Positions 6,500 to 22,804 of a stretch of DNA of 41,809 nucleotides are shown here, in pieces. Both the position numbers and the translations under genes were made by a program. Origin of the DNA: Burkholderiales bacterium (lineage in GTDB: Bacteria > Pseudomonadota > Gammaproteobacteria > Burkholderiales > Usitatibacteraceae). The stretch lies in contig JANYGV010000067.1 in the NCBI GenBank assembly GCA_025359285.1, positions 1 to 41,809 on the forward strand. The letters are read 5' to 3'. The notes below the pieces were generated by a model that saw only the letters and a program-made list of their open reading frames with translations, was not told the origin of the DNA and made no database searches. Position 1 is the first letter of the stretch. The number at the start of each line of letters is the position of its first letter.

Positions 6500-7915
6500 A
6501 TGAGTCCGATTGAAAAGCAGGTCACGCAAAACTTTTTTCAACAAACGTCGCAACACGAATTCAGCGCCGGGCTCAAGCCGCTGCAAGAACGTTTCAAGGC
6601 GGTGCGGGACGCGACTGAACGCCTGACAGCGCCACTGAAAGCCGAAGATTGCAATCTGCAATCGATGCCGGATGCGAGTCCGATTAAATGGCATCTCGCG
6701 CATTCGACCTGGTTTTTTGAGACTTTTATTCTCGAAAAATTCGAACCGAATTTCGCGCCGTTTCATCCAGCGTTTAGGGTCCTGTTTAATTCCTACTACA
6801 ACGGCGTTGGCGACAAACATCCGCGCCATGAACGCGGCCTGATTTCGCGTCCAGATTTAGCAACGGTGTTCGACTATCGTCATGACATTACCAAGCGCAT
6901 CGCCAACCTGATTGAAGCTTTGGGCGACACGAATCACAGCTTCGCCGAACTCATGTGGCTGGGCTGCAATCACGAGGAGCAACATCAGGAGTTAATTCTC
7001 ACTGATCTGAAACATCTGCTCTCCAAAAATCCGCTAAAGCCCGCCTATCAAACACGCTGGCCACTTACTGCAATCGAAGGGCGCCAGCCACGTTGGCATA
7101 AATATGAAGGTGGCTTGGTTGAAATCGGCGCAAGCAAGCCGCGTACGAATGTAAATTCACAAGGCGATTTCTGTTTCGATAATGAAACGCCGCGCCATCG
7201 TGTTTTTTTAGAGCCCTTTGAGATTGCGTCACACCCAGTCACCCACGGCGATTTTGCGGCGTTCATTGCCGATGGCGGCTATCAGCGCCCCGAGCTGTGG
7301 TTATCGCTGGGCTGGGATTGGCTAAACGAGCAGAAAATTACCGCACCTTTGTATTGGGAACTGCGTGATAACGACACGAGCAATAGCGGCACGACCAATA
7401 ACGACACGACCGATAGCGGCACGACAAAAATCTGGATGACATTTACGCTGCACGGCATGGTCGAGATTGATGTGCACACGCCCATTTGTCATGTCAGTTT
7501 TTTTGAAGCTGACGCGTACGCGCGCTGGAAAGGCGCCCGCCTGCCCACCGAGGCCGAGTGGGAACATGCTGCCGCCTTGGCCACACAACATGTTGGGATC
7601 AGCGGCAATTTTCTCGATAGCCACGCCCTGCATCCGCTAGCAATGCGCGAGCAAACGTCGTCAGAATATCCGCAACAATTATTTGGCGATGTGTGGGAAT
7701 GGACCGCCAGCGCGTATTTAGGCTATCCCGGTTACCAAGCGGAAACAGGTGCCGTCGGCGAATACAACGGCAAATTTATGTGCAACCAATTCGTATTACG
7801 CGGCGGCTCCTGCGCCACGCCCACGCCGCACATCCGACCCAGCTATCGCAACTTTTTCCCGCCTGAAGCGCGATGGCAATTTAGTGGTTTGCGCTTGGCA
7901 AGAAATGCGATATGA
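6500..7915 (+). CDS. egtB: Ergothioneine biosynthesis protein EgtB
   Basis: A 471-residue iron-dependent sulfoxide synthase. The N-terminal DinB-type domain has the iron histidines H68 (WHLAHSTWFF) and H158/H162 (NHEEQH). The C-terminal FGE-like domain has RLPTEAEWEHAA, GDVWEWTASAYLGYPG and VLRGGSCATP followed by IRPSYRNFF. EgtB joins hercynine with a thiol (gamma-glutamylcysteine or cysteine) to give the sulfoxide precursor of ergothioneine. It follows senB on the same strand after about 160 bases. The usual partner egtD, the histidine methyltransferase, is not next to it. Residues 290-309 are a Thr/Asn/Ser/Asp/Gly insertion made by four 15-nt repeats in a loop of the FGE-like domain. Start ATG 6500 agrees with family N-termini. 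Confidence 0.95.
   Translation: MSPIEKQVTQNFFQQTSQHEFSAGLKPLQERFKAVRDATERLTAPLKAEDCNLQSMPDASPIKWHLAHSTWFFETFILEKFEPNFAPFHPAFRVLFNSYYNGVGDKHPRHERGLISRPDLATVFDYRHDITKRIANLIEALGDTNHSFAELMWLGCNHEEQHQELILTDLKHLLSKNPLKPAYQTRWPLTAIEGRQPRWHKYEGGLVEIGASKPRTNVNSQGDFCFDNETPRHRVFLEPFEIASHPVTHGDFAAFIADGGYQRPELWLSLGWDWLNEQKITAPLYWELRDNDTSNSGTTNNDTTDSGTTKIWMTFTLHGMVEIDVHTPICHVSFFEADAYARWKGARLPTEAEWEHAAALATQHVGISGNFLDSHALHPLAMREQTSSEYPQQLFGDVWEWTASAYLGYPGYQAETGAVGEYNGKFMCNQFVLRGGSCATPTPHIRPSYRNFFPPEARWQFSGLRLARNAI
7367..7426. repeat. 15-nt tandem array (4 units) inside egtB
   Basis: Four in-frame 15-base units (GATAACGACACGAGC, AATAGCGGCACGACC, AATAACGACACGACC, GATAGCGGCACGACA) encode DNDTS-NSGTT-NNDTT-DSGTT. 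Units alternate as a higher-order 30-nt duplication. The frame is preserved and the stretch lies in a predicted loop. Confidence 0.9.
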
Positions 7916-20707: not shown

Positions 20708-21073
20708 TCAGGCCAGCATTTTTTTCATCTCGCCGCTGTCAATAAGCCGTTTTACATCATCTGCGCCACCGACCAGCGTGCCTTTTACAAACACCATCGG
20801 AAACGTCGGCCAGCCTGTCCAATTTTTGAGCGCGTTGCGGCGACGCCAGTTGTTAAAATAGCTGCCGTATTCAAGATATTGGTAAGCAATACCCGCCTGA
20901 TCCAGCGATTGACGCGCGCGCTTGGGCATCGGATTTTGTGACATACCGACCACCACGACTGCGTTCGCAGCAATCGCCGCCTGCACCTCCCGGACGATGT
21001 CCGCATGATGACTGGCAACCACTTCTTTTATTGCAGGATGAATATTAGATTCAGCAAGTATGGGACGCGGCAT
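20708..21073 (-). CDS. Cysteine-less glutaredoxin-fold protein
   Basis: A 121-residue protein aligning by eye with monothiol glutaredoxins. The N-terminal helix is followed by a strand (NAVVVVGMSQNPMPKRA), a middle YLEYGSYFNNWRRRNALK, the cis-Pro motif WPTFPMVFVKG and the GG-D motif GGADDVKRLIDSGEMKKML. In active proteins the CGFS/CPxC motif lies where this reads MSQNPMP, and the later GGCD has become GGAD. There is no cysteine anywhere in the protein, so redox catalysis or normal Fe-S ligation is not possible. It may serve as a structural or binding protein. It lies between the FAD-dependent dehydrogenase and the OGT-like gene on the same strand. Confidence 0.82.
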   Translation of the reverse strand: MPRPILAESNIHPAIKEVVASHHADIVREVQAAIAANAVVVVGMSQNPMPKRARQSLDQAGIAYQYLEYGSYFNNWRRRNALKNWTGWPTFPMVFVKGTLVGGADDVKRLIDSGEMKKMLA

Positions 21074-21103: not shown

Positions 21104-22804
21104 TCAGTAGGTGGGGGCTTGATCATCAATCATCAAGCGCTTGTGGCGCGTCACCACGCGGCCTGCAAGATCGCCACCAATCATGCTGAGGGCAACAGCC
21201 TCGGCGACCTTAATGCCATCAACGCCCGCCGACATGATGCCGCCAGCGTAGCCTGCGCCCTCGCCTGCCGGAAACAGGCCACGCGTATTGATGCTTTGAA
21301 AATCATCATCATGCCGGGTGATGCGAATCGGTGAAGAAGTGCGCGTCTCAACGCCTGTGAGCACCGCGTCATGCATGGCAAATCCTTTGATCTGCTTGGC
21401 AAACGCGGGCAGCGCTTCGCGCACCGCCTCGATTACGAACGCCGGCACGCATGTGGCCAGATCCGTCATACGAACGCCGGGCTTGTACGATGGCTCCACG
21501 CTCGCCAATGCGGTGGATGGCCGACCTGCTAAAAAATCGCCAACCAACTGCGCAGGCGCACAATAGTTTTCGCCGCCGGCTTTGAAAGCCTGTTCCTCCC
21601 AATGACGCTGAAAATCAATGCCCGCCAACGGGTGACCGGGGAAATCGCGTTCTGGCGTGATGCCGACCACAATGCCCGCGTTCGCATTGCGCTCGTTACG
21701 TGAATACTGGCTCATGCCATTGGTCACCACGCGGCCCGCTTCGGAAGTTGCCGCCACTACCGTGCCGCCGGGGCACATGCAGAAGCTATAGGCACTACGG
21801 CCATTCGCGCAATGATGCACCAGCTTGTAATCGGCAGCGCCCAATATATCGCTCTGCACATTTTCAGCAAATTTGTCACCAAAACGCGCACGATCAATCA
21901 GCGATTGTGGGTGCTCGATGCGAAAGCCGATTGAAAACGGTTTGGCTTCTACATAAACCCCATTTTCGTGCAACGCATAGAAAGTATCGCGTGCACTGTG
22001 ACCAATCGCCAGCACCACATGATCTGCCGCAAGAATTTCACCGTCGTTGAGCACCAATCCGCGCAACTGGCGCGACCCATCCGGGAGCGTTGCGATATCG
22101 AAGCTGGTAACACGCTGTTGAAAACGGATTTCGCCACCCAGTGACTCAATCGTGGCTCGCATTTTTTCCACCATTGTCACCAGCTTGAAGGTTCCGATGT
22201 GTGGTTTGGAGACGTACATTATTTCCGCTGGCGCGCCAGCCGTAACGAATTCTGTCAGTACTTTGCGGGTTAAAAAAAACGGGTCTTTGATCTGGCTCCA
22301 TAATTTTCCATCCGAAAATGTGCCTGCGCCACCCTCACCAAATTGCACATTTGATTCAGGGTTCAGAACCGATTTGCGCCACAAACCCCACGTGTCCTGG
22401 GTACGCTCGCGAACTGCCTTGCCGCGCTCCAGCACGATAGGTTTAAAGCCCATCTGTGCCAGCGTCAACGCCGCAAACAAGCCACAAGGCCCCAAGCCAA
22501 TGACGACCGGTCGTGATTTCAAGTCCGGCGGCGCATGCGCAATAAATTGGTAGCGGGTGTCAGGCGTAATACTAAGTTTGCCATCACCCTCGACGCGTTT
22601 TAGCAGTGCGGCTTCGTTTTTGACTTCAACATCAATGGTGTACACCAGCAGTATTTCGCTACGCTTCCTAGCATCATAGCCGCGACGAAAAATTGTATAG
22701 CGGATGAGCGCAGCGGCATCAATTTTCAGACGTTTCAATATCGCCGCTTGCAGGGCATCTGCAGCATGATCAAGAGGAAGTTTAATTTCGGTGAGACGAA
22801 GCAT
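21104..22804 (-). CDS. NAD(P)/FAD-dependent oxidoreductase (COG2509-like dehydrogenase)
   Basis: A 566-residue flavoprotein. An N-terminal domain of about 95 residues (LPLDHAADALQAAILKRL) precedes the Rossmann dinucleotide motif GLGPCG (103-108) and LERGKAVRERTQDTWG. The second nucleotide-binding region includes VVLAIGHSARDTFYALHENG, and the C-terminal FAD contact is FPAGEGAGYAGGIMSAGVDG. This order matches the large family of uncharacterised FAD-dependent dehydrogenases found in most bacteria. No substrate has been firmly assigned. The Grx-like gene begins 30 bases downstream, so the two are likely co-transcribed. Confidence 0.9.
   Translation of the reverse strand: MLRLTEIKLPLDHAADALQAAILKRLKIDAAALIRYTIFRRGYDARKRSEILLVYTIDVEVKNEAALLKRVEGDGKLSITPDTRYQFIAHAPPDLKSRPVVIGLGPCGLFAALTLAQMGFKPIVLERGKAVRERTQDTWGLWRKSVLNPESNVQFGEGGAGTFSDGKLWSQIKDPFFLTRKVLTEFVTAGAPAEIMYVSKPHIGTFKLVTMVEKMRATIESLGGEIRFQQRVTSFDIATLPDGSRQLRGLVLNDGEILAADHVVLAIGHSARDTFYALHENGVYVEAKPFSIGFRIEHPQSLIDRARFGDKFAENVQSDILGAADYKLVHHCANGRSAYSFCMCPGGTVVAATSEAGRVVTNGMSQYSRNERNANAGIVVGITPERDFPGHPLAGIDFQRHWEEQAFKAGGENYCAPAQLVGDFLAGRPSTALASVEPSYKPGVRMTDLATCVPAFVIEAVREALPAFAKQIKGFAMHDAVLTGVETRTSSPIRITRHDDDFQSINTRGLFPAGEGAGYAGGIMSAGVDGIKVAEAVALSMIGGDLAGRVVTRHKRLMIDDQAPTY

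What the first reader, a model, noticed from the sequence alone, without database searches (positions are those of the whole stretch)
20708..21073. Glutaredoxin-fold protein that has lost every cysteine
The WPTFPMVFVKG and GG-DD motifs identify a monothiol-type glutaredoxin, but the active-site CGFS is replaced by MSQNP and no Cys remains. The fold conserved without chemistry suggests a new role, for example glutathione or partner binding. It is likely co-transcribed with an FAD-dependent dehydrogenase.
Basis: partly seen in the sequence, partly recalled or inferred. Interest (0 to 1): 0.55.

Follow-up and report, generated by a model that had tools for sequence, protein, structure and literature searches.

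The report
Conserved cysteine-free bacterial glutaredoxin-like family
This gene makes a small protein folded like a glutaredoxin (a common thiol-handling enzyme), but its reactive cysteine is always an asparagine, and 49 relatives from diverse Proteobacteria share this, so it is a maintained, uncharacterised family that cannot work by the usual cysteine chemistry.

Summary
The 121-aa ORF at 20708-21073 (-) is a real glutaredoxin-domain protein (Pfam PF00462 E=2e-8; AF2 pLDDT 92; best PDB folds all Grx) with no cysteine. It is not a local loss or pseudogene: 49 intact homologues (50-77% identical to the window protein; patchy in Burkholderiales, rare in other Gammaproteobacteria, one on an alphaproteobacterial plasmid) form one clade apart from both canonical Grx types. 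All 49 carry Asn where the catalytic Cys sits, usually as NPxP in place of CPYC; scattered cysteines in eight members never occupy the active site. Part of the GSH groove is kept (R79, T-x-P, GG); the acidic GSH contact after GG is not. The FAD-dehydrogenase linkage is local (3 of 6 congeners), with no conserved neighbourhood elsewhere. Most likely it is a non-catalytic module whose remodelled groove binds glutathione or a related ligand (about 0.45). Protein-protein adaptor is the main rival; thiol-independent GST-like catalysis is the most novel reading not excluded.

The parts
20708..21073 (-). CDS of the cysteine-free glutaredoxin-like protein, 121 aa (stop codon included)
   Evidence: ORF and translation; PF00462 E=2.1e-8; AF2 pLDDT 92; 49-member family
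20924..20935 (-). Pseudo-active site N47-P48-M49-P50, in place of C-P-Y-C
   Evidence: Ungapped profile alignment to class I Grx; loop and helix register equal to Grx3 of the same genome; N47 invariant, P48 in all but one
20837..20839 (-). R79 in helix 3, aligned with the Arg found here in both class I and class II Grx of related bacteria
   Evidence: Alignment with canonical Grx; invariant
20798..20812 (-). W88-P89-T90-F91-P92: class-II-type WP motif plus the T-x-(cis)Pro loop that contacts GSH in glutaredoxins
   Evidence: meaning of WP and TVP from PMC7138851 and PMC11724882
20756..20770 (-). G102-G103-A104-D105-D106: GG kept, first acidic position not conserved in the family, second mostly D/E
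   Evidence: Column counts: 105 = D15 S11 E6 N5 Q4 G3...; 106 = D33 E13 N2
20858..20878 (-). Y66-L-E-Y-G-S-Y72 loop, family-specific signature leading into W76 and R79 of helix 3
   Evidence: Nearly invariant in the family, absent from class I and II Grx of relatives
20999..21073 (-). Conserved N-terminal extension (R3, L6, H12-P13-A14-I15) not present in canonical Grx3/Grx4 of relatives
21104..22804 (-). Upstream FAD-dependent dehydrogenase-like gene (PF21688), 30 bp away, possibly co-transcribed; link not conserved

Best explanation
A dedicated pseudo-glutaredoxin: a glutaredoxin paralogue in which Asn permanently replaces the nucleophilic Cys (and Pro usually replaces the resolving Cys) while the fold, the helix-3 Arg, the T-x-Pro loop and the GG turn are kept and a new aromatic/Arg-rich wall (YLEYGSY...W-RRR-NALK-W-GW) has become fixed. 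Proposed mechanism: the remodelled groove binds glutathione or a related small or peptide ligand non-covalently, with N47 capping the active-site helix and R79 and the T90-P92 backbone holding the ligand, without thiol-disulfide exchange or Fe-S ligation by the protein. The bound state then regulates or delivers to a partner. Shown: fold (by model), invariant Asn, no active-site Cys in any member, purifying selection, coexistence with true Grx3 and Grx4, partial retention of GSH-groove residues. Inferred: ligand binding, ligand identity, downstream role.
For: PF00462 in 20 of 20 members tested. Asn47 in 49/49 and Met44 in 49/49 intact homologues; any Cys sits at five scattered columns in eight members, never at the active site. 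One clade apart from class I and II Grx, SH-aLRT 96. Close-pair dN/dS 0.11-0.14 and dN < dS for the window. R79, T90, P92, G102, G103 (near-)invariant. Positions chosen as groove-lining by homology are more conserved than the domain average, 0.865 v 0.761, permutation p about 0.01. The genome also encodes a CGFS Grx4 and a CPYC Grx3, so thiol chemistry is covered elsewhere. Model register puts N47 exactly on catalytic Cys.
Against: The acidic residue directly after GG-x, present in the Grx4/Grx3 of relatives, is variable here. The Lys before the active site is Met, although Grx3 of these bacteria also lacks it. The groove set was chosen by hand from homology, so the p-value is only indicative. 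No ligand, partner or conserved operon identifies the function. Glutathione binding was not modelled or measured.
Confidence: 0.45

Rival explanations
1. Protein-protein adaptor: the Grx fold is used purely as a binding scaffold, as in SH3BGRL-type Grx-like proteins; the conserved Tyr/Trp/Arg residues and the N-terminal extension bind a partner protein, not a small ligand.
For: Family-specific invariant residues (Y66, G70, Y72, W76, K83, W85, W88) and a conserved N-terminal extension absent from canonical Grx. Precedent: SH3BGRL proteins have a Trx fold, lack CXXC/CXXS and act non-enzymatically on actin (PMC12827327).
Against: No conserved neighbour gene or fusion identifies a partner. Some GSH-groove residues (R79, T90, P92, GG) are retained, though T-x-Pro and GG are also structural.
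Confidence: 0.3
2. Cysteine-independent glutathione enzyme, working like Nu-class glutathione transferases YfcG/YghU, which bind two GSH or one GSSG and reduce disulfides with a non-Cys residue at the sulfur-contact position; N47 would orient a GSH thiolate.
For: Invariant Asn at the nucleophile position; weak GST_N_2 similarity in 8 of 20 members, best E=0.0019. Precedent for disulfide reduction with Thr at this position (PMC3995644).
Against: No C-terminal GST helical domain; the Glu/Asp-Ser dipeptide reported as conserved in disulfide-reducing GSTs is not evident; no fusions. Only weak similarity to GST models.
Confidence: 0.17
3. Degenerating paralogue with no function: the catalytic site was lost and the gene is on its way out.
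For: Patchy distribution; two truncated copies, L047 (C-terminal half only) and L048 (N-terminal half only).
Against: Invariant Asn and about 28 other positions at 0.98 or more over 49 intact sequences; dN/dS 0.11-0.14 in the closest pairs; 13 of 28 genomes sampled in its own family keep it.
Confidence: 0.04

Closest known systems
Class II (CGFS, Grx4/GrxD) monothiol glutaredoxins
   Same: Fold; WP motif before T-x-P; Arg in helix 3; better profile-profile score than class I (73 v 51); TIGR00365 is the best NCBIfam model
   Different: No CGFS, no 5-residue loop before the active site, no Lys, no conserved Asp after GG-x; TIGR00365 47.6 bits v cut-off 117; cannot ligate Fe-S through a protein Cys
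Class I (CPYC, Grx3/Grx2) glutaredoxins
   Same: Active-site loop length and ungapped register; Pro after position 1 (NPxP v CPYC); best profile and fold hits in the PDB are class I
   Different: Both cysteines replaced (N, P); WP motif instead of basic residues before T-V-P
Plant class III glutaredoxins (ROXY, CC-type)
   Same: Grx fold used outside standard thiol catalysis; regulatory role proposed (PMC11724882)
   Different: ROXYs keep the active-site cysteines (CCMC/CCLC); this family has none; no relationship tested
SH3BGRL family (Grx-like, no CXXC; actin regulators)
   Same: Trx/Grx fold lacking the catalytic motif, non-enzymatic role (PMC12827327)
   Different: Eukaryotic; not recovered by sequence search here; different signatures
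Nu-class glutathione transferases YfcG/YghU
   Same: Trx-fold GSH site with a polar non-Cys residue at the sulfur position
   Different: Two-domain GSTs; only marginal GST_N_2 similarity here

Membership tests
Glutaredoxin domain family (PF00462) | Score above Pfam gathering cut-off | tested here: met
   34.6 bits v 22.9; 20 of 20 members match at E<=0.1
Glutaredoxin domain family (PF00462) | Grx/Trx fold | tested here: met
   AF2 pLDDT 92; best Foldseek PDB hits, E about 1e-7, are glutaredoxins, TM 0.6-0.8
Functional glutaredoxin (class I or II) | Essential Cys at the N-terminus of the active-site helix | tested here: not met
   Asn in 49/49 intact homologues
Class II (CGFS) glutaredoxin | CGFS plus elongated loop between Lys and Cys | tested here: not met
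   Loop is 4 residues, as in Grx3; no CGFS
[quoted passage not shown]
   W88 49/49, P89 43/50
Class II (CGFS) glutaredoxin | Glutathione-ligated Fe-S cluster binding | not testable with these tools
   No protein Cys ligand exists; biochemical test needed
Class I (CPYC) glutaredoxin | CPYC/CPYS motif | tested here: not met
   NPxP (P50 in 40/50, V in 10/50)
Class I (CPYC) glutaredoxin | GSH-dependent oxidoreductase activity (HEDS, roGFP2) | not testable with these tools
GSH-binding Grx groove | Helix-3 Arg/Gln, T-x-Pro loop, GG turn | tested here: met
   R79, T90, P92, G102, G103 at 0.98-1.0
GSH-binding Grx groove | Acidic/polar residue after GG-x contacting the gamma-Glu end | tested here: inconclusive
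   Position 105 variable, position 106 mostly D/E
Glutathione transferase | GST_N domain above cut-off plus C-terminal helical domain | tested here: not met
   GST_N_2 13.3 bits v 25 for the window protein; protein only 121 aa

The most novel reading that the evidence does not exclude
A separate, so far unnamed bacterial glutaredoxin class in which an invariant Asn replaces the catalytic Cys and supports thiol-free glutathione handling (sensing, carrying or GST-like activation of bound GSH), running beside the ordinary Grx3 and Grx4.
Probability: 0.2. Interest if true: 0.75.

Novelty: new variant of a known kind. Interest (0 to 1): 0.48.

Why it matters
Genome annotation calls such proteins 'glutaredoxin' (e.g. 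the Loktanella plasmid copy) although they cannot do glutaredoxin thiol chemistry. A bacterial clade with a fixed Cys-to-Asn change gives a natural experiment on what the Grx groove does without its nucleophile, and a bacterial counterpart to the eukaryotic cysteine-less Grx-like proteins. It also warns against inferring redox function from the domain hit alone.

Tried and rejected
Local loss or pseudogene: rejected, homologues share the Asn site. Functional operon with the FAD dehydrogenase: not conserved. Common neighbour genes over 50 loci: naive and exhaustive ORF clustering gave only shadow ORFs in high-GC DNA and unrelated common families. Domain fusions suggested by long open frames: the upstream in-frame stretches examined look non-coding, no fusion. 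Cys-bearing intermediates: none in 399 genomes of the order; apart from a 37-residue fragment (L078), nothing scored between the family (E <= 1e-53) and the 1e-15 limit. Phage origin: no relative in IMG/VR. Literature: no description of this family found in open-access full texts, but the library is incomplete. Alphaproteobacterial distribution could not be sampled.

Full report
What is there. The ORF at 20708-21073 (-) translates to 121 residues without a single cysteine. It matches Pfam Glutaredoxin PF00462 above the curated cut-off (34.6 v 22.9 bits), but no NCBIfam glutaredoxin model reaches its cut-off (best TIGR00365, 47.6 v 117.1). An AlphaFold2 model from 20 homologues has pLDDT 92, and its best solved neighbours are glutaredoxins (zebrafish and human Grx2, plant Grx, E. 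coli Grx4).

Where the active site is. The family profile aligns without gaps to class I glutaredoxins, placing N47 on the first Cys and P50 on the second: NPMP for CPYC. The models agree. Here a strand (39-43) is followed by a 4-residue loop ending in N47 and a 12-residue helix from P48; in the Grx3 of the same genome a strand (4-8) is followed by a 4-residue loop ending in catalytic C12 and a 12-residue helix from P13. The class II elongated loop is absent. Yet the class II WP motif is present and the profile-profile score is better with class II (73 v 51). A direct class II alignment handles the loop by gaps, so the ancestry (class I or class II) is unresolved. In the terms of Liedgens et al. 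(PMC7138851) the protein is a hybrid that fits neither class.

Is it conserved? Yes. Homologues were found in relatives, in GTDB contigs, in 29 of 399 sampled genomes of the order, in 7 of 369 of the class, own genome included, and on a Loktanella plasmid annotated 'glutaredoxin' at 50% identity. A phylum-wide draw of 399 genomes gave hits only in the same order. Of 49 intact sequences all have N47 and M44; R79, T90, P92, G102 and G103 are invariant or at 0.98. Eight members have a single Cys, at five different columns (10, 54, 64, 86, 104), none in the active site. The family is one side of a branch against 11 class I and 19 class II Grx (SH-aLRT 96); long branches caution against reading its sister group. 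dN/dS of the two closest pairs is 0.11 and 0.14. The same genome encodes ordinary CGFS Grx4 and CPYC Grx3.

What is kept and lost. Kept: helix-3 Arg, T-x-Pro, GG. The T-V-P backbone contacts GSH in known Grx (PMC11724882). Lost: both cysteines; the acidic residue after GG-x is variable, although the next position is mostly D/E. The Lys before the active site is Met, but Grx3 of these bacteria lacks that Lys as well, so this is not diagnostic. Gained: a conserved N-terminal extension with R3, L6, H12-P13, and the YLEYGSY-x3-W-RRR-NALK-x-W-x-GW signature.

Surroundings. The FAD-dependent dehydrogenase lies 30 bp upstream on the same strand. The same order is found in two congeners with wider gaps, but not in three other congeners that have the gene, nor at any other locus examined. 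Congeners without it keep the dehydrogenase, with a short-chain dehydrogenase as a nearby gene in most of those examined. Co-transcription in this genome is plausible; functional coupling is not supported. No neighbourhood, fusion or phage context was found.

Mechanism. Without Cys the protein cannot exchange disulfides or ligate Fe-S through its own thiol (established Grx chemistry, PMC7138851). Retained groove residues and the invariant Asn favour a non-covalent ligand role (0.45, inferred). An SH3BGRL-like adaptor role (0.30; PMC12827327) and a YfcG/YghU-like cysteine-independent GSH chemistry (0.17; PMC3995644) are not excluded.

Verdict. A real, conserved, cysteine-free glutaredoxin-like family; a new variant of a known fold family. 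Function is unproven. Interest is moderate.

Noticed in passing
L048:5001-5171 and L047:5001-5171: Two truncated copies of the family: L048 keeps only the N-terminal half, running into an unrelated open frame that looks membrane-spanning; L047 keeps only the C-terminal half. Local decay occurs in some lineages.
   Followed up: partly
window:18312-20648 (-): Downstream same-strand gene encodes TPR repeats plus a Glyco_transf_41 (SPINDLY/OGT-like) region; homologue not found next to the gene in other loci.
   Followed up: partly
window:21104-22804 (-): Uncharacterised FAD-dependent protein (PF21688) kept in 11 of 13 congeneric genomes (own included), at 69-82% identity in the others, with differing neighbours.
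   Followed up: partly
window:4102-5289 (-) and 6500-7915 (+): Two divergently oriented FGE-sulfatase (formylglycine-generating enzyme-like) domain genes within 4 kb of each other.
   Followed up: no
L002 and Grx3 of relatives: Class I Grx3 in these Burkholderiales has T-G/A-V-C rather than the K-x-x-C of E. coli Grx3 (from memory), so the 'highly conserved' activator Lys is missing in an otherwise canonical Grx.
   Followed up: no
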